Assembly: GCA_002347985.1 (NCBI GenBank)
Contig: DDYM01000043.1
Location: forward strand, 43,552 to 63,265
Length of the DNA stretch: 19,714 nucleotides
Source of the DNA: Bacteroidetes bacterium UBA2234
GTDB taxonomy: Bacteria; Bacteroidota; Bacteroidia; NS11-12g; UBA955
Direction: 5' to 3'
Under the pieces are notes generated by a model that was not told the DNA's origin, did not search any database, and worked only from the letters and a program-made list of their open reading frames with translations. The position numbers and the translations under genes were made by a program. The number at the start of each line of letters is the position of its first letter. The first letter of the stretch is position 1. Shown one piece after another: positions 10,595 to 18,623 of this stretch.

Positions 10595-11219
10595 AGCGAT
10601 TCACGCACTTGTTTATCACGTCGTGCACACTTTGATAAGAATTGAATTCAGCGGTCTTAAACCAATCCAAATCCGCAAATTTTACTTCTGATATCCCCTC
10701 TTCCACCTGAGGTTTAAGGGATCCCTTGCCGTTGCTATTCATCAAATACCAATGCGTTTCCTTCAAAAGCAAAATCTCGTCCTCGTAATACACATGGTAG
10801 GTTTCGCCAATCTTATCGCTGATGTTGATCATATTGATGCCGGTTTCCTCCATCACTTCGCGCAACGCAGCAGCCATCTGGTCTTCATGTCGCTCAATTT
10901 TTCCCTTTGGCAAATCCCACAGCCCATTGCGCTTTATCGTTAGCAATTGATCTTCTTTATTGAAAACCAATCCGCCGGCCGCTTGAATCACAGTGAAGTC
11001 TTCCATGAACTCCAAAATTGTTGCCTTCGGGTCGGGGCAAATCAGCCCAAAATGCAATGGCTTTCCATTGTTCTGTGAAGAAAGCAAAATTTTAAAACTC
11101 TTCTGCAATTCATCATCCCCAATAAAATACAAATTACTCAATCCGCGCAATGCTTCAGGAGAATCTGCAATAACCAAAGCACCGTCGTTGAAATAGATTT
11201 TATAACTTTGCGCTTCCAT
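10578..11219 (-). CDS. NUDIX hydrolase with an N-terminal extension domain
   Basis: 213 residues from the ATG at 11219. The frame can be extended two codons to a TTG at 11225, but ATG is favoured. A complete NUDIX box lies at 106-128: G106, E112, R120-E121, E124-E125, G127-I128, with all metal-binding acidic residues kept. The enzyme should hydrolyse a nucleoside-diphosphate-linked substrate; which one cannot be told. Residues 1-75 are an extra small alpha/beta domain (YKIYFNDGALVIAD at the start) of a type often seen in Bacteroidota NUDIX proteins next to pyrE. The start codon overlaps that of pyrE on the other strand (CATG). The 3' end overlaps coaD by 17 bp. Confidence 0.9.
   Translation of the reverse strand: MEAQSYKIYFNDGALVIADSPEALRGLSNLYFIGDDELQKSFKILLSSQNNGKPLHFGLICPDPKATILEFMEDFTVIQAAGGLVFNKEDQLLTIKRNGLWDLPKGKIERHEDQMAAALREVMEETGINMINISDKIGETYHVYYEDEILLLKETHWYLMNSNGKGSLKPQVEEGISEVKFADLDWFKTAEFNSYQSVHDVINKCVNRFKIGV
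11203..11210 (+). promoter_or_regulatory. -7 promoter element (TAACTTTG) of pyrE, inside the NUDIX coding region
   Basis: Exact TAnnTTTG match, seven bases before the pyrE ATG at 11218. It lies within the first codons of the NUDIX gene on the opposite strand. The nearest TTG (11188-11190) gives a 12-bp spacer, shorter than usual. Confidence 0.5.
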
Positions 11220-11859
11220 GTCCAATCAAGCCGCAAAATTAGCAAAATTTCTCTTAGAAATAAAGGCAGTAAAACTAAGTCCTTCAGAACCATTCACTTG
11301 GACTTCTGGCATCCTATCTCCCATCTACTGTGACAACAGAATGGTGCTATCTTACCCCGAAGTTCGCACATTTGTGGCCGAAGAACTCGCCCAATTGATT
11401 CAACAACAGTTTCCGCAAGCAACCCGAATCGCTGGGATCGCAACCGCCGGAATCGCCCATGGTGCCTTGGCAGCCGACAAACTCAACATGCCCTATTGCT
11501 ACGTGAGACCCGAGCCCAAAAAACATGGATTGAAAAATCAAGTGGAAGGGGAAATGAATCCCGGCGATAAAATCGTACTCGTGGAAGACCTAATTTCCAC
11601 TGGAAAAAGTAGTTTCCAAGCCGTTGAAGGCGTTCAAAATGCAGGGGCAGAGGTCATCGGCGTTGTTGCACTTTTCACCTACGGATTTGCCAATGCTATG
11701 GAAAAATTTGTAAATGCTGGCATCCCCGTGTTTACACTCACCAACCTCCCTACACTCACCGAAGTGGCAGCAGCACATGGCTTTATTCAAGACAATGAAT
11801 TGGCCACCGTAAATCGATTTGCCGAGAACCCTAGCGCTTGGGGAGAATCGCTGAAATAG
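11218..11859 (+). CDS. pyrE: Orotate phosphoribosyltransferase (PyrE)
   Basis: 213 residues, usual length. It makes orotidine 5'-monophosphate from orotate and PRPP, step five of de novo pyrimidine synthesis. It shows the N-terminal hood FTWTSGILSPIYCDNR (26-41), the flexible catalytic loop RPEPKKHGLKNQVEG (97-111), and the PRPP loop VLVEDLISTGKSS (120-132) with the paired acidic residues E123-D124. The start at ATG 11218 gives the family's expected N-terminal helix. The stop lies inside the 3' end of the ligase-like gene on the opposite strand (29-bp overlap). Confidence 0.96.
   Translation: MSNQAAKLAKFLLEIKAVKLSPSEPFTWTSGILSPIYCDNRMVLSYPEVRTFVAEELAQLIQQQFPQATRIAGIATAGIAHGALAADKLNMPYCYVRPEPKKHGLKNQVEGEMNPGDKIVLVEDLISTGKSSFQAVEGVQNAGAEVIGVVALFTYGFANAMEKFVNAGIPVFTLTNLPTLTEVAAAHGFIQDNELATVNRFAENPSAWGESLK
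11234..11241 (-). promoter_or_regulatory. -7 promoter element (TAATTTTG, minus strand) of the NUDIX gene, inside pyrE
   Basis: On the minus strand it reads TAATTTTG, an exact TAnnTTTG match, 14 bases before the NUDIX ATG at 11219. It lies in codons 6-8 of pyrE. The two opposed -7 elements are only 23 bp apart, with start codons between them. Confidence 0.45.
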
Positions 11860-12712
11860 TCGATTTGTCCGCTACAACTTCCATGGGCGACCCAATTTCC
11901 CAGGATTTCATCACTGCGTCTTTCACGCTGTAACCCGATTTCGTTCGTTTGCTCTCCTCAATAGAGCCACATTCAATGGTAAATACCTGAACCGCGGGCA
12001 GTCGATGCACCGGGCCGAATTTCTCTTGCGTGTTCTCTACAATCCACTGTTCAATGGAATCTCTCTCCTCCTCCGGCAACTCAACGCCCACTTTTGAAAA
12101 TGTCACCCAACCCAACTCGGAACCGATTCCCATCGTAAATTCCGTAAATCCGTTGCGACCGTTTGATCTTCCCCGCTCAGCATAGAGCAAAACAACTTTC
12201 AATTCGATGCAATCTCTCTGTAATGCAAGGCCCGACAAAAAATCACCACCCACAGGACTTTTAAAACTGCCAGTAATGAGTTTGTTAAACAACTGAATTT
12301 CTTTTGTCGATAAACTCTGCCACCAACCCACAATCCAAGATCGAAGGGTGTTCTTATCACCCTCCCTCATTTCATCCATCGACGCAATCAATTGACTGAT
12401 TTGTATTTCTGAACTGTCGCTACTTTGCAATGGCGTTAAGATCAATGCAAGGGTTTCCGACATATCACCCACAAATCTCTTGCTCTCCACCAACAACCAT
12501 TCAGGAATCCCCGTGGTCTCCAAAGCCAATTGCTTTAATTGTTTCGCTGAAATCAACGGTTGCGGACAATCATTTTTAAGCAGTGCTGTAATCGTCGCCA
12601 AATCATTTGGTTTGTTGCTCAGATTGCGCTGAAAATCGACCCAAATTCTATACTTGTCCTGCCCATTTTTAGAGGCACCCAAAGCATCAACCAATTGCAA
12701 AAACTGCCTCAT
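11831..12712 (-). CDS. Truncated ATP-dependent DNA ligase: DNA-binding domain joined to OB-fold, adenylation domain missing
   Basis: 293 residues, against about 530 for bacterial LigB/LigD-like stand-alone ATP-dependent ligases. Residues 1-160 match the N-terminal DNA-binding domain: MRQFLQLVDAL start, FVGDMSETLALIL at 80-92, and FNKLITGSFKSPVGG at 142-156. Residues about 170-293 match the C-terminal OB-fold: VVLLYAERGR (173-182), FTMGI, EEERDSIEQWIVENTQEKFGP (215-234), TKSGYSVKD (257-265). Between them, at about 163-170, the whole nucleotidyltransferase domain with the KxDG lysine is absent. The frame is open throughout, with no stop or shift, so this looks like a clean internal in-frame loss rather than a decaying gene. 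It cannot ligate by the known mechanism. It might act as a DNA-binding clamp or partner for the coupled exonuclease, which is inference. The ATG overlaps the exonuclease stop (ATGA). Confidence 0.85.
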   Translation of the reverse strand: MRQFLQLVDALGASKNGQDKYRIWVDFQRNLSNKPNDLATITALLKNDCPQPLISAKQLKQLALETTGIPEWLLVESKRFVGDMSETLALILTPLQSSDSSEIQISQLIASMDEMREGDKNTLRSWIVGWWQSLSTKEIQLFNKLITGSFKSPVGGDFLSGLALQRDCIELKVVLLYAERGRSNGRNGFTEFTMGIGSELGWVTFSKVGVELPEEERDSIEQWIVENTQEKFGPVHRLPAVQVFTIECGSIEESKRTKSGYSVKDAVMKSWEIGSPMEVVADKSTISAILPKR

Positions 12713-13713
12713 TCTTCTGTCCTATTCCAATGTCCCACTTTTACAACTTCGGCGTGAATGAACAAATTCTCTCTGAGATACCGAGCAAAAATTTCCGAAA
12801 AACCGTGTGTCACATAAACATTTTCAGCATTTGAGGAAACCACGGCCTCTAATAGTTGCGACCAATCGGCATGATCACTCATCACAAATCCTTTGTCTAC
12901 CGCGCCCCAATGCTGCGACTTTTGCATCGCCATCCAACCACTGCAATTGGCCAAAGCATGCTTCCCAATTTTCTTAATCAAGGGTCCGTTCAAAGCATTG
13001 GGAGGGCAAATCAATAAAGATCTAGAAAGTGCATCTTTGCCCAAACCATCCACCGCAGTTTCTGCTTCCGACCAATCGCCAAATTCATAACCACTCCTCT
13101 CCAAAGCGCGGTTTGCATCTGCGATGGCGGAATGACAAATTACCTCGCCAATGTCGCGATTCAAATACTTCATGATGCGCTGCGCCTTACCCAATGAATA
13201 ACCCAAGATAATTGAGGTTGTCCCGCACTCCGCATTTTGTTGCCACCAATCGTTGATATCGGCAAATACTTCTGCCTGGGGCTTCCAATGGAATATCGGC
13301 AATCCAAATGTACTTTCCGTTACAAAGTGATGACATCGCACCGATTCAAAAGCCGGCGATAACCCGTCGGCGAGTGTTTTATAATCCCCACTGATAACCC
13401 ATATTTCCCCGTGATAGGAAAGTCTCACTTGGGCACTCCCCGGCACATGTCCTGCAGGAAACAGTGTAATTTCAACCCCATTCATGAAAATCGATTCGCC
13501 ATAAACAAGTCCCTGGATAGAAATGCCCTTTCCCAAACGCAGTTTCATGATTTCAACGCCGCTCCACTCACACAGATACGAACCCATCCCCGGCCTCGCA
13601 TGGTCGCTATGGGCATGTGTAACAATGGCCCTGGGAACCTTTCTCAAAGGATCGATATACACATCCGCTTGCGGACAGTAAAAACCCAATTCCGTGAAAA
13701 CCACCAACGACAT
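12709..13713 (-). CDS. Ligase-associated DNA exonuclease (metallo-beta-lactamase/beta-CASP fold)
   Basis: 334 residues from the ATG at 13713. The frame extends upstream to 13797, but MSLVVFTELGFYCPQADVYIDP is the normal family N-terminus. The metallo-beta-lactamase motif THAHSDH is at 32-38 (H33, H35, D37, H38), followed by PAGHVPGSAQ (H89), SGDYK (D110), TESTFG (E133), SDHADW (D280, H281) and VTHG (H303). The metal site therefore looks complete. The family is usually encoded beside an ATP-dependent DNA ligase, and often a DEXH helicase and a PdeM endonuclease, and is presumed to act in DNA repair. Here it is the first gene of a two-gene operon and overlaps the ligase-like gene by four bases. 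Helicase and PdeM genes are not adjacent. No exact -7 element was found upstream. Confidence 0.9.
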   Translation of the reverse strand: MSLVVFTELGFYCPQADVYIDPLRKVPRAIVTHAHSDHARPGMGSYLCEWSGVEIMKLRLGKGISIQGLVYGESIFMNGVEITLFPAGHVPGSAQVRLSYHGEIWVISGDYKTLADGLSPAFESVRCHHFVTESTFGLPIFHWKPQAEVFADINDWWQQNAECGTTSIILGYSLGKAQRIMKYLNRDIGEVICHSAIADANRALERSGYEFGDWSEAETAVDGLGKDALSRSLLICPPNALNGPLIKKIGKHALANCSGWMAMQKSQHWGAVDKGFVMSDHADWSQLLEAVVSSNAENVYVTHGFSEIFARYLRENLFIHAEVVKVGHWNRTEE

Positions 13714-13837
13714 TCCCTCAAATTTCCGACATTTTAGCCGTGTCATCATCAAAAAGTTTCGTTTAAAAGCAGGCCAATTCAGACGGCAAAGCATCAACTT
13801 CTAGCCAAAAATGAGTTAATTTGCGACTTATAACATT

Positions 13838-16009
13838 ATGAAACAACGCATATTAAGTTTAGCCTTGGCCTTTACAGCGATTTTTCAGCTGAGAGCCGAT
13901 GAAGGCATGTGGCCCCTAACCTTGCTACAAAAAATCCAAGATCCAATGCAAGCCCGTGGTTTGAAATTGTCGGCCGACGATATCTACGCGGTAAACCACG
14001 CATCTGTAAAAGACGCCATCGTGCGTTTGATGTCTAAACAAGGACGTATGTTCTGTACCGGTGAGGTTATCTCAAGTCAAGGATTGTTCCTTACCAATCA
14101 CCACTGCGGTTACGGTGCCATTCAAGAACTTTCAACCAACGAAGACAACATCTTAAAAAATGGTTTTTGGGCAGCCAACCAACAAGCTGAACGCAAGGCC
14201 AATTTCAATATCGGATTGCTGAGAAAAATTGAAGATGTTACAGCGATTGTCCTCAAAGATATCGCCATCAATCAAGACGAAGCCACCCGCGCCAAAGCTG
14301 TTATGGCTCAAATTGCAAAGGCAAAAGAAGCTGCCATCGCTGGTTTGGGTGAAGAACGCAATAACTACGTGGTAGAAATTTCATCATTCTACAACGGAAA
14401 TCAGTACCTAGCGATGTACTACGAAGTATACCGCGACATCCGTTTGGTTGGAACCCCACCAGAAAGTGTAGGAAAGTTTGGTGGTGAGACCGACAACTGG
14501 CGTTGGCCCCGTCATACTTGCGATTTTAGCATGTTCCGCATTTATGCCAACGAAAACAACAAGCCTGCAGATTTTACCCCAGCCAACAAGCCTTTTAGCC
14601 CACAGCACCATTTGGCGATCAACATCGGCGGAATGAAGACCGGAGATTATGCCATGATCATGGGTTATCCTGGTCGTACCACACGATACACCTACAGCGA
14701 AGGAATCAAATACCTCGGCAGCAAAGAACGTCCGATGCGTGTTGCCTTGCGCCGTGATATCATGGATGTATATGAAAAATACATGAAGCAAGACGAAGCC
14801 GTGCGATTGATGTATTCAGATCGTTTGGCTGGCATCGGAAACTATTGGAATAAATTCAATGGCGAAGCCCACGATTTGTCTAAGCCAGGTGGATTGTACG
14901 ATACAAGAAAAGCCGCTGAACTCTCATTTGAGCGTTGGATGCGTGAAAATAAAAAGACAGACGTATACGGCGATGTGACTTCTTTGTACGATGAAGCCTA
15001 CCGCGAATTGTATACCTATGGCCTATACCCTGTGTACTTCCAAGATGGTATTTCAAATAGTCAACCCATGTCATTTGCGATGTCGATCAAAGCCATTGCC
15101 GATGCCATTGCCTCCGGAAAACCTGATACCGCAATGTCGAATGGTATGTTGCGCAACATCGACGAGATGTACAAAGAGTTTTACCCCGCCATTGAAAAGG
15201 AAGTGTTGGCCGCGGTCATCGATCACCTTTACAAAGACCTTGATCCAACCTTATTGCCTGCCGATTTGGTAGCATTGATGAAAAAATACAAAGACAACGC
15301 AACTGCGGTTGCCGAAGTGTTGTTTGCCAAGTCAATTTTATCAGACAAGGGCAGAATGGCTAAATTCTTGGCAAAACCTTCAGCGAAGAAGTTGGAGTCA
15401 GATTTATTGTATAAAATCACAATTGCCTACATCAATAAACTTCGTGTGGACTTGAAACCCGTTTATGATGGAATCAACAGCAAATTGGATCGCGCCAACC
15501 GCCTGTTCTTGTCGGCCCAGTTGGAAATGTTACCTAGCGGACAGGCCATGGCCCCAGATGCAAATGGAACCATGCGTTTGACCTACGGTACAATCATGCC
15601 TTACGATGCCCGCGATGCCGTGAGTTATTCTTTCTTCACTACCTCTAAAGGAATTTTAGAAAAATACAAAGCCGCCGATTTTGAATTCGATGCGCCTCAA
15701 AAATTACTCGCCCTGATTCGCGCGAAAGATTTTGGTCAGTACGCCGATAAAGATGGAGAGTTGCATACTTGCTTCTTGTCGAACAACGACATTACAGGCG
15801 GTAACAGCGGAAGCCCTGTCATGAACGCCAAAGGACAATTGATTGGTACTGCGTTTGATGGCAACTGGGAAGCCATCAGTTCTGACTTTGCGTTCTTGCC
15901 AAATGTGCAGAGAACCATCAGTTTGGATGTGCGCTACACCTTGTTCATTGTTGAGAAATTGGGTGGTGCAAAGCATCTGATCGACGAGATGACCATTGTA
16001 AAAGACTAA
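13838..16009 (+). CDS. S46 family dipeptidyl-peptidase (DPP7/DPP11 type)
   Basis: 723 residues, typical for S46. Signal peptide 1-20 (LRA/DEG). These periplasmic serine peptidases remove dipeptides from the N-terminus of oligopeptides in peptide-using Bacteroidota. Catalytic triad: the NHHCGYG histidine (H89, preceded by H88), D229 in HTCDFSMFR, and S657 in GGNSGSP. DNWRWPRH (about 220-227) is the conserved substrate N-terminus-binding region. The residue 18 after the catalytic serine is G675. From memory, Gly here fits DPP7-like preference for hydrophobic P1, while DPP11 has Arg for Asp/Glu. No C-terminal sorting domain is present. A near -7 sequence (TTAATTTG, one mismatch) at 13816-13823 may be its promoter. 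Two hairpins follow the stop. Confidence 0.94.
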   Translation: MKQRILSLALAFTAIFQLRADEGMWPLTLLQKIQDPMQARGLKLSADDIYAVNHASVKDAIVRLMSKQGRMFCTGEVISSQGLFLTNHHCGYGAIQELSTNEDNILKNGFWAANQQAERKANFNIGLLRKIEDVTAIVLKDIAINQDEATRAKAVMAQIAKAKEAAIAGLGEERNNYVVEISSFYNGNQYLAMYYEVYRDIRLVGTPPESVGKFGGETDNWRWPRHTCDFSMFRIYANENNKPADFTPANKPFSPQHHLAINIGGMKTGDYAMIMGYPGRTTRYTYSEGIKYLGSKERPMRVALRRDIMDVYEKYMKQDEAVRLMYSDRLAGIGNYWNKFNGEAHDLSKPGGLYDTRKAAELSFERWMRENKKTDVYGDVTSLYDEAYRELYTYGLYPVYFQDGISNSQPMSFAMSIKAIADAIASGKPDTAMSNGMLRNIDEMYKEFYPAIEKEVLAAVIDHLYKDLDPTLLPADLVALMKKYKDNATAVAEVLFAKSILSDKGRMAKFLAKPSAKKLESDLLYKITIAYINKLRVDLKPVYDGINSKLDRANRLFLSAQLEMLPSGQAMAPDANGTMRLTYGTIMPYDARDAVSYSFFTTSKGILEKYKAADFEFDAPQKLLALIRAKDFGQYADKDGELHTCFLSNNDITGGNSGSPVMNAKGQLIGTAFDGNWEAISSDFAFLPNVQRTISLDVRYTLFIVEKLGGAKHLIDEMTIVKD

Positions 16010-17078: not shown

Positions 17079-18623
17079 TTAGGGTGTCAACCTTCCATAC
17101 ATCCTCGGGAATGGAATACTTTCGCGTACGTGCTTCAACTTACATACCCAGGTCACCAATCGCTCTAATCCCAATCCAAAGCCGGCATGGGGAACAGATC
17201 CGTAACGACGTAAATCTAAGTACCATTCAAATTCAGACATCGGCAATTCGTGTTCGATAATCTTCGCCGTTAGCAATTCCAAATCCGTTTCTCTTTCTCC
17301 TCCACCCACGATTTCACCGTATCCTTCGGGCGCCAAAACATCAACACCGCGGGCAAAACGTGAATCCGCCGGATTGCGCTTCAAATAAAATGCCTTCACT
17401 TCGTGTGGCCAATCGTAAACCATCACCGGACGGTCGAACAAACGAGTGATTACCGTTTCATCCGATCCTCCAAAGTCATCACCATAGGTGAAATTCTTTG
17501 CACTCTGAATCCATTGCGGAATGTTTCGCAAGTCTTCTTCAACATCCGATTTTTCCTGCTTTAACTGTGTAATCTTGGTTTGATGAAAATTGATTTCTCC
17601 CTTCTTCATGCCAGGAACCGCGATTTTGGCCTCTCTTTCTGCAATTTCTGCATCCAAAGAAATCAACAATGCCTCGCAACGCTTTAACTCCTCTTCCAAA
17701 CTAACAATACTATTCACACCGTTTACATCCTCTTCTCCTTTGATAATCCTTACCGCTTGATCGTATGTCATCCTCGGAAATGCACCCAAGCTCGATTCCA
17801 AAACAGAAACATCCCTTCCAATGGTTTGTAATTCACCGCGGCATTTCTCCAAAACACGCTTCAACACGTGCTGCAAAAATCCTTCAATACAATCCATGTT
17901 TTGGAAAATGTCGTGGAAGGCCATTTCTGGTTCAATCATCCAGAATTCCGATAAATGTCGACGAGTCTTCGACTTCTCCGCGCGAAACGTAGGACCAAAC
18001 GTGTAAATCTTACCCATGGCCATCGCCATCGCTTCACCATATAACTGACCGCTCTGACTTAAAAAAGCCGGCTCACCGTAGAAATCTGTTTCAAACAACG
18101 TACTCGTCCCTTCACAAGCGTTTCCTGTAAAAATGGGCGCATCCATCTGCACAAATCCCTCCCCCTGGAAATATTCATGAATGGCAAAAATGATGGTGTT
18201 TCTGATGCGCATAATGGCCCACTGACGCGTACTGCGTAACCACAAATGCCTTTGATCCATCAGAAATTCGATCCCGTGTTCCTTTTTGGCAATCGGATAA
18301 TTCTCCGATACACCCACAATCGCAAGAGAAGTTACCTGCAGTTCAACACCGCCCAACTGTTTCTCATCTGCCTTCAACAATCCATGCAACTCCACACTGG
18401 TCTCCAAACTCAAGGTCTGCGCCAACTCCAAATATTGCTCATTGGCAGTTTCGGCTGTTACAACACACTGTACATAGCCCGTACCGTCGCGCAAAATCAC
18501 GAAAACAATGCCCTTACCCTCACGCTTATTCGATACCCAACCACGCAAAACAATCGTTTCGTTGATATGCGATTGAAGGTCCTGAATACTTACCGCCTTT
18601 GAACTGAAATCCTGAGTTCCCAT
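17079..18623 (-). CDS. asnS: Asparagine--tRNA ligase with an internal coiled-coil insertion
   Basis: 514 residues; class IIb synthetase charging tRNA-Asn with asparagine in the cytoplasm. An OB-fold anticodon-binding domain lies at about 24-105 (VLRGWVSNKREG at 25-36). Motif 2 is FRAEKSKTRRHLSEFWMIEPE (213-233), motif 3 GFGLGLERLVTWV (481-493), and the C-terminus has the usual ESIPFPRMYGR. GTSTLFETDF (172-181) and IVGGGERE (438-445) point to Asn rather than Asp specificity. An extra segment at about 297-385 interrupts the catalytic domain. It contains two heptad-like charged helices (about 307-336 and 342-367) joined by VPGMKKGE, then returns at ETVITRLFDRPVMVYDWP. Without it the length would be near 430. 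ATG 18623 is a normal start. A -7 element lies 43 bases upstream. Confidence 0.95.
   Translation of the reverse strand: MGTQDFSSKAVSIQDLQSHINETIVLRGWVSNKREGKGIVFVILRDGTGYVQCVVTAETANEQYLELAQTLSLETSVELHGLLKADEKQLGGVELQVTSLAIVGVSENYPIAKKEHGIEFLMDQRHLWLRSTRQWAIMRIRNTIIFAIHEYFQGEGFVQMDAPIFTGNACEGTSTLFETDFYGEPAFLSQSGQLYGEAMAMAMGKIYTFGPTFRAEKSKTRRHLSEFWMIEPEMAFHDIFQNMDCIEGFLQHVLKRVLEKCRGELQTIGRDVSVLESSLGAFPRMTYDQAVRIIKGEEDVNGVNSIVSLEEELKRCEALLISLDAEIAEREAKIAVPGMKKGEINFHQTKITQLKQEKSDVEEDLRNIPQWIQSAKNFTYGDDFGGSDETVITRLFDRPVMVYDWPHEVKAFYLKRNPADSRFARGVDVLAPEGYGEIVGGGERETDLELLTAKIIEHELPMSEFEWYLDLRRYGSVPHAGFGLGLERLVTWVCKLKHVRESIPFPRMYGRLTP

What the first reader, a model, noticed from the sequence alone, without database searches (positions are those of the whole stretch)
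11831..12712. DNA ligase that has cleanly lost its catalytic domain
The protein keeps the N-terminal DNA-binding domain (1-160) and the C-terminal OB-fold (about 170-293) of an ATP-dependent DNA ligase, but the roughly 200- to 240-residue adenylation domain, including the KxDG lysine, is missing at about 163-170 (nucleotides near 12205-12225). The frame is intact, the operon overlap with the exonuclease is kept, and both remaining domains are well conserved. This suggests selection for a non-ligating DNA-binding protein rather than decay. Domain identities come from family knowledge; a retained role is inference.
Basis: partly seen in the sequence, partly recalled or inferred. Interest (0 to 1): 0.85.

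Follow-up and report, generated by a model that had tools for sequence, protein, structure and literature searches.

The report
DNA ligase shell without catalytic core
A bacterial gene that descends from a DNA-sealing enzyme has lost the part that does the sealing, yet the remaining shell has been kept across a genus next to a DNA-trimming enzyme, and something very similar is seen in a distant phylum, which hints at a second, non-sealing job for this protein.

Summary
ORF 11831-12712(-), 293 aa, descends from LigB-type (TIGR04120) ligases but has no adenylation domain; a sister ligase is about 233 aa longer. It is not an assembly fault: 80 of 80 short-form clusters tested match DBD and OB domains, none the adenylation domain. 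In genus g1, 11 of 15 draft genomes carry it, each with the exonuclease (cut by a contig end in G005); the other 4 have neither. PF01068, Lhr and MPE are over cut-off in 0 of 15; NAD ligase in 15 of 15. Selection is purifying (dN/dS mostly 0.2-0.5), weaker than on the neighbours.

Conserved basic positions are kept less well than aliphatic ones, a bias that weakens when motif VI is set aside, so DNA binding is in doubt, not excluded.

A second NTase-less ligase overlaps the exonuclease in an Armatimonadetes genome; its nearest kin in a rough tree are full-length ligases with eroded motifs, also beside the exonuclease. I read this as recurrent conversion of LigB into a non-catalytic partner of the exonuclease.

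The parts
11831..12712 (-). NTase-less LigB-derived protein (short form), 293 aa
12257..12712 (-). DNA-binding-domain part, residues 1-152 (last DBD helices missing)
   Evidence: Pfam PF04675 3-152; alignment A3
12212..12256 (-). junction, residues 153-167, standing in for roughly 250 residues (end of DBD plus adenylation domain) of sister ligases
   Evidence: alignment A3 against seven full-length rows
11834..12211 (-). OB-fold part, about residues 168-293
   Evidence: own OB HMM matches the same part of close relatives L107 and L108; A3
11933..11947 (-). R256-x-K258-x-G260, invariant in the 23 short forms of A1 and present as K-x-K-x-G in L137
   Evidence: A1, A5
11888..11923 (-). place of ligase motif VI (RFPR..RWR.DK in sister ligases), replaced here
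   Evidence: A3
12709..12712 (-). ATGA: stop of exonuclease overlaps start of short form
   Evidence: sequence
12709..13797 (-). ligase-associated exonuclease (beta-CASP/MBL type, recalled); the ORF starts at 13797, the likely start by comparison is 13713
   Evidence: TIGR04122 403.8 bits against cut-off 325; HAHSDH present
11218..11859 (+). phosphoribosyltransferase (orotate type by my reading), converging, 29-base overlap with the short form; conserved flank
   Evidence: PF00156; synteny
13838..16009 (+). S46 peptidase, diverging; conserved flank that marks the empty site in G004, G008 and G013
   Evidence: PF10459

Best explanation
The gene encodes a ligase-derived pseudoenzyme. In an ancestor of these strains a LigB ligase, encoded next to a beta-CASP-type exonuclease, lost its adenylation domain and the catalytic residues of the OB domain (loss shown by alignment; single origin in g1 inferred from synteny). 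The DBD-OB shell has been kept in frame, overlapping the exonuclease gene, most likely as a non-catalytic partner of that exonuclease: it would bind the nuclease through the old ligase folds and place or regulate it at DNA ends or gaps, while sealing is left to the NAD-dependent LigA (all inferred). The helicase and the MPE nuclease of the classical four-gene cluster are not found over cut-off in these draft genomes, so the working unit appears reduced to exonuclease plus ligase shell.
For: Presence and absence go together: short form in 11 of 15 g1 genomes, exonuclease in the same 11 (10 over cut-off, G005 a piece at a contig end), neither in the other 4. Three of those 4 show the empty site between the same flanks; G010 (73% complete) could not be judged. 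PF01068 in 0 of 15, LigA in 15 of 15, Lhr over cut-off in 0 of 15, MPE in 0 of 15 (11 of 15 have weak matches of 25-33 bits). Purifying selection on the whole gene. Convergence: L137, a 340-aa DBD-OB protein in an Armatimonadetes genome without a PF01068 match, again ATGA-overlapped with the exonuclease; its nearest kin in the tree (L149, L133, L227; support 0.92) are full-length ligases that fail three to five of five catalytic-motif tests, each beside an exonuclease gene. Core positions are kept better than basic ones. [quoted passage not shown] Exonuclease-LigB fusions are reported (PMC10140301, passages).
Against: Neighbouring genes can be lost together by one deletion, as G004 suggests, so co-loss does not prove a joint function, and 4 co-losses may be only two or so events. 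In 17 of 80 surveyed loci no ligase is seen near the exonuclease (L113, L140 and L143 of these end at the contig end), so it does not in general need one; and in the same family G016 has a full ligase beside Lhr with no exonuclease over cut-off. The window exonuclease is nearly all core (TIGR04122 covers residues 31-353 of 362), so it has no long C-terminal tail like that with which Artemis binds ligase IV, and subclade B lacks a recognisable N-terminal DBD part. The NTGA test is loose: it passes in 45 of 64 other loci, and a TGA stop passes three times in four by chance. dN/dS is 1.7-4.5 times that of the exonuclease, one close pair gives 0.68 (G007-G011), and for the DBD of G007-G005 neutrality is not excluded (0.89, 95% 0.47-2.01). 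No interaction, structure or expression was tested.
Confidence: 0.5

Rival explanations
1. A slowly decaying remnant: after loss of catalysis the shell is under relaxed selection and persists because it is short, folded, overlaps its neighbours and has only a weak residual role.
For: dN/dS 1.7-4.5 times that of the exonuclease in 13 comparable pairs; subclade B 22-32% identical and N-terminally reduced; no trace of the pair, or scraps only, in 4 of 15 genomes; conserved basic residues partly lost.
Against: Whole-gene dN/dS below 1 in seven of seven bootstrapped pairs, six of them with dS of 0.85 or more; no stop in frame in the carriers; 50 of 62 close clusters are 287-298 aa long; 22 invariant columns in 23 sequences of A and B; a second case in another phylum.
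Confidence: 0.27
2. A free-standing DNA-binding protein: DBD and OB close on nicked or gapped DNA without ligating, protecting or marking it.
For: Both parts descend from DNA-binding folds; four OB positions (451, 475, 500, 502 in the numbering) are basic in all nine short forms aligned; outside motif VI the loss of basic positions is only modestly significant.
Against: The window keeps 8 of 18 conserved basic positions outside motif VI and has lost RFPR; net charge of 53 close short forms averages -6, the window -3 over its two parts; next to the exonuclease in every g1 genome that carries it.
Confidence: 0.16
3. A split ligase: the adenylation domain is supplied in trans by another protein.
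For: None found; it would explain why the shell is kept.
Against: No PF01068 match in 15 of 15 g1 draft genomes or in the genome of L137; motif VI, which acts with the adenylation domain (recalled), is lost too.
Confidence: 0.02
4. Assembly collapse or misassembly removed the domain.
For: The window comes from a draft genome in 74 contigs.
Against: Short form in 11 g1 assemblies and in 80 protein clusters from several sources, with conserved synteny.
Confidence: 0.01

Closest known systems
LigB-type bacterial ATP-dependent DNA ligase (TIGR04120, cisplatin damage response ligase)
   Same: DBD and OB fold by descent; gene order and stop-start overlap with the exonuclease
   Different: no adenylation domain, no KxDG, no motifs V and VI; below the family cut-off; no Lhr or MPE over cut-off in the genome
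Ligase-associated exonuclease TIGR04122
   Same: the neighbour gene passes the family cut-off (403.8 bits against 325) and has the HxHxDH site
   Different: its ligase neighbour here cannot ligate
Artemis-DNA ligase IV pair of vertebrate end joining
   Same: beta-CASP nuclease paired with a ligase; binding through the ligase N-terminal helices; a non-catalytic role of the ligase (PMC4037875, PMC10858965, passages)
   Different: ligase IV is active and has BRCT domains; Artemis binds through a C-terminal tail that the bacterial exonuclease does not have; subclade B lacks recognisable matching helices
Exonuclease-LigB fusion proteins (Opitutus terrae, Dry Valley metagenome; PMC10140301, passages)
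   Same: shows that nuclease and ligase can act as one body
   Different: fused and with a full ligase

Membership tests
LigB-type ATP-dependent DNA ligase (TIGR04120) | N-terminal DNA-binding domain | tested here: met
   PF04675 30.3 bits over cut-off 24.6, residues 3-152; last helices missing
LigB-type ATP-dependent DNA ligase (TIGR04120) | adenylation domain with KxDG lysine | tested here: not met
   no PF01068 in the protein or genome; no adenylation-domain hit in 80 of 80 short clusters
LigB-type ATP-dependent DNA ligase (TIGR04120) | OB fold with motif VI | tested here: not met
   OB part detected, motif VI residues replaced
LigB-type ATP-dependent DNA ligase (TIGR04120) | score over family cut-off (400 bits) | tested here: not met
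   110.3 bits
Four-gene LigB cluster (exonuclease, ligase, Lhr helicase, MPE) | exonuclease next door | tested here: met
   TIGR04122 403.8 bits, ATGA overlap
Four-gene LigB cluster (exonuclease, ligase, Lhr helicase, MPE) | Lhr helicase and MPE in the genome | tested here: not met
   TIGR04121 over cut-off in 0 of 15 g1 genomes; TIGR04123 in 0 of 15, with weak matches in 11
Ligase-associated exonuclease (TIGR04122), neighbour gene | family cut-off and HxHxDH metal site | tested here: met
Artemis-ligase IV type nuclease-ligase complex | physical binding of nuclease to ligase DBD | not testable with these tools

The most novel reading that the evidence does not exclude
LigB ligases are repeatedly turned into non-catalytic subunits of the neighbouring beta-CASP-type exonuclease, by loss of catalytic residues and in the end of the whole adenylation domain. 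The result is a two-gene nuclease system with a ligase-derived adaptor, reached independently in a Bacteroidota genus and in Armatimonadota, and perhaps begun in Obscuribacterales and Cyclobacteriaceae. It would imply that the classical LigB ligase also has a structural, non-sealing role in its repair pathway.
Probability: 0.4. Interest if true: 0.82.

Novelty: new variant of a known kind. Interest (0 to 1): 0.7.

Why it matters
The role of the LigB repair pathway is not currently known (so stated in a passage of PMC10140301). Natural ligase shells that cannot seal, kept beside the nuclease while helicase, MPE and catalysis are gone, separate sealing from any structural function and offer a direct experiment: does the shell, or the shell part of an active LigB, steer the exonuclease? 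It would be a bacterial counterpart of the non-catalytic role of ligase IV. It is also a gap in annotation: among the close short forms only the window's own cluster has a precomputed Pfam domain, and 6 of 6 other g1 short forms scanned stay below the Pfam cut-off; many carry no name or 'hypothetical protein', though three C-terminal fragments are called DNA ligase.

Tried and rejected
Assembly collapse, a split ligase in trans and a stray single mutation were tested and rejected. Phage origin: tblastn of the short form against 50,697 phage records, no match. Known defence protein: no PADLOC hit for the short form, the exonuclease or L137. A first genome-contig scan with the short form found nothing; the second, with a g1 exonuclease alignment, gave the loci. 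Its patterns contained VTHAHSDH, so that motif is constant there by construction; L240-L242 came another way. That survey holds the best 80 of 246 loci. The profile search scored 8000 candidates and listed 120 of 488 hits; I took the 18 short rows P0196-P0213 by length and lack of Pfam domains. From I left out six fragments (P0063-P0068) and seven longer rows with the adenylation domain (P0069-P0075).

The Bacteroidota sample (395 genomes, 135 with a match) cannot exclude more NTase-less forms: the match list was cut before scores as weak as that of the window itself, and several genomes with best E between 5e-11 and 5e-19 (among them G290, G436 and G585 of one genus) stayed unresolved. In the order of G092, 113 genomes were searched and 43 had a match; among the matches listed only G092 shows the NTase-less pattern.

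It does not place the g1 short forms inside the ligases of their family; that descent rests on synteny and on the exonuclease (g1 exonucleases are 59-61% identical to that of G017, which has a full ligase). The grouping of L137 with pseudo-ligases may be helped by long-branch attraction. dN/dS is a Nei-Gojobori count with some saturated pairs, and some frames run stop to stop with a few upstream residues. The reference set is 76 of 83 distinct full-length ORFs: 70 that pass all five motif tests and 6 that fail only motif VI. It is not the same count as the 76 of 90, which includes duplicates.

Literature: searches (open-access library, listings seen) returned no listing that describes a ligase without its adenylation domain. 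Four papers were opened: PMC10140301, PMC8301817 and PMC4037875 (passages only) and PMC10858965 (outline with abstract, and passages). Ejaz and Shuman 2018 is not held and is known only as cited. The role of RFPR as a minor-groove wedge, the motif names and the word beta-CASP for the bacterial exonuclease are recalled.

Full report
What is there. The ORF at 11831-12712 on the minus strand codes for 293 residues. Pfam finds the ligase N-terminal domain at residues 3-152 and nothing else; NCBIfam TIGR04120 matches in two stretches at 110 bits, cut-off 400. Aligned with full-length ligases (A3), the short protein follows them to TG-S-F-K at residue 151, skips the last DBD helices and the adenylation domain, and resumes at about residue 168 in the OB fold. 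The sister ligase L079 was aligned with 526 residues. Motif V (KWK) and motif VI (RFPR..RWR.DK) are also gone.

It is a family, not an accident. A protein search gave 75 hits: 62 are short forms or large pieces of them, 48-60% identical, 6 are smaller C-terminal fragments and 7 are longer proteins with an adenylation domain. A profile search added 18 divergent short clusters, P0196-P0213. I tested these 80 (P0001-P0062, P0196-P0213) with HMMs built from seven full-length relatives: 80 of 80 match DBD and OB at E below 1e-3 and none matches the adenylation domain even at E below 1. Of the 62 close ones 50 are 287-298 residues long; nine are pieces of 204-248.

Distribution. The window lies in G000, a 2.2 Mb draft (95.4% complete) of a genus, g1, of which 15 genomes, 73-100% complete, are held. 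Matching records are metagenome-assembled genomes titled Bacteroidetes, Bacteroidota, Bacteroidia or Flavobacteriales, for example UBA955. The short form is in 11 of 15: subclade A (G000, G005, G007, G011) and the divergent subclade B (G001, G002, G003, G006, G009, G012, G014), cut by contig ends in G003 and G006. PF01068 is in 0 of 15 g1 genomes but in 7 of 58 relatives, all in other genera of the family. The exonuclease TIGR04122 is over its cut-off in 10 g1 genomes and present as a piece at a contig end in G005. G004, G008, G010 and G013 have neither gene over threshold. In G004, G008 and G013 the flanking S46 peptidase and phosphoribosyltransferase face each other with no room for the pair; in G004 two scraps of the exonuclease and the last codons of the short form remain. 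G010's flank was not found. Lhr (TIGR04121) and MPE (TIGR04123) are over cut-off in 0 of 15 g1 genomes. NAD-dependent ligase is in 15 of 15.

Selection. Pairwise dN/dS for the short form is 0.19-0.46 in 15 pairs and 0.68 in one low-divergence pair. The exonuclease gives 0.06-0.16 in 13 pairs of near-full length (three pairs with the 49-codon piece of G005 give 0.11-0.30), the phosphoribosyltransferase 0.02-0.06, and full ligases of sister genera 0.08-0.16 in the four pairs where dS was usable. Bootstraps over codons keep the ratio below 1 in seven of seven pairs for the whole gene and for the OB part, and in six of seven for the DBD. The gene is constrained, but less than its neighbours.

Which residues are kept. 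The reference is 76 distinct full-length ligases without the seven pseudo-ligases below; six of them fail my strict motif VI test only. Of 31 DBD positions conserved in 85% or more, four subclade A forms keep 19 on average, L137 21 and four subclade B forms 9; of 60 positions counted as adenylation domain A keeps 0, B 1 and L137 4, which I take as placement by the aligner. By chemistry, the window keeps 55 of 72 aliphatic but 9 of 23 basic positions; L137 keeps 65 of 75 and 9 of 23; six intact control ligases, themselves in the reference, keep 19-22 of 23 basic positions. Five of the 23 belong to motif VI. Without them the window keeps 8 of 18 (p 0.019) and L137 9 of 18 (p 0.0016); 6 of 9 short forms stay below p 0.05, while P0007, L010 and L011 do not. 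Four OB positions are basic in all nine. The folds are probably preserved, but part of the surface that grips DNA in a ligase is given up. This weakens, and does not exclude, the DNA-binding idea.

A second origin. Among 80 exonuclease loci (the best of 246) from several phyla, 8 carry DBD and OB in one frame without an adenylation domain: seven are g1 and one is L137, from a record titled uncultured Armatimonadetes bacterium; 52 have adenylation-domain signal, 3 show only a DBD at a contig end, and 17 show no ligase, three of these because the contig ends. The L137 protein (340 aa) follows the exonuclease with an ATGA overlap, keeps K-x-K-x-G and has lost motif VI; its 5.3 Mb genome has no PF01068 match. 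Lhr was not searched in that whole genome; none is seen in the 17 kb around it. Of 90 full-length LigB ORFs examined, 76 pass five catalytic-motif tests; 8 (7 after removing one duplicate) fail two or more, and 6 fail only motif VI, one of them cut at its end. The strongest failures are L133/L226 and L228 (no motif intact), L227 (one intact), L149 and L223 (two intact). All five have an exonuclease gene next to them. L160 and L181 fail motifs V and VI only. In the tree L137 joins L149, L133 and L227 (0.92), then L181 and L223 (0.82); the g1 forms are a separate clade (0.98). So catalysis was probably lost at least twice, and around L137 residue loss may have come before domain loss.

Mechanism. 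The simplest account is a non-catalytic partner of the exonuclease. The two genes overlap and are found together or not at all in g1; helicase, MPE and sealing activity are gone; the nuclease HxHxDH site is intact. Vertebrate end joining offers a model: Artemis, a nuclease with beta-CASP domain, binds the first two helices of ligase IV through a C-terminal peptide (PMC4037875, passages), and catalytically inactive Lig4 supports synapsis (PMC10858965, abstract and passages). PMC10140301 (passages) describes the four-gene LigB operon and exonuclease-LigB fusions. Against this: exonucleases without an adjacent ligase, and ligases without the exonuclease (G016), exist; the bacterial exonuclease has no Artemis-like tail; subclade B lacks a recognisable N-terminal DBD part; the short form evolves fast; and the NTGA overlap test is loose, passing in 45 of 64 other loci and in 6 of 8 loci with eroded or NTase-less ligases outside g1. 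I give the partner model 0.50, slow decay with a residual role 0.27, and a free DNA-binding protein 0.16.

Membership and novelty. By descent it is a LigB ligase; by test it is not one, since adenylation domain, motif VI and family score fail. The exonuclease is an ordinary member of TIGR04122. I found no description of such a protein in the listings of the searches named under Tried and rejected, which cover open-access papers only. I call it a new variant of a known kind.

Noticed in passing
L160:9099-10805 (Cyclobacteriaceae PL23a_bin.46): Full-length LigB with KWDG kept but the second motif V lysine (WWKWN) and motif VI lost; it lies about 3 kb from the exonuclease with a 740-aa ORF, a membrane protein by my reading, between. 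Possible early stage of catalytic loss in Bacteroidota.
   Followed up: partly
L181:1937-3589 (Obscuribacterales): Full-length LigB beside the exonuclease with motifs V and VI and the RxKxG of the OB domain lost.
   Followed up: partly
G290, G436, G585: Three genomes of one Bacteroidota genus have only weak TIGR04120 matches (best E 4e-12 to 5e-11) whose coordinates were not listed; they could be other ligase types or more NTase-less forms.
   Followed up: no
G073:C66:9033-9674 (L089): TIGR04120 match to positions 1-215 only in a 232-residue frame, in another genus of the same family; truncated gene or contig end not checked.
   Followed up: no
17079-18623 (-): Asparaginyl-tRNA-synthetase-like ORF (my reading, no search) with a charged, possibly coiled-coil insertion of about 80 residues.
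   Followed up: no
11218-11225: The phosphoribosyltransferase and NUDIX genes start head to head with an overlap of 8 bases as the ORFs are called.
   Followed up: no
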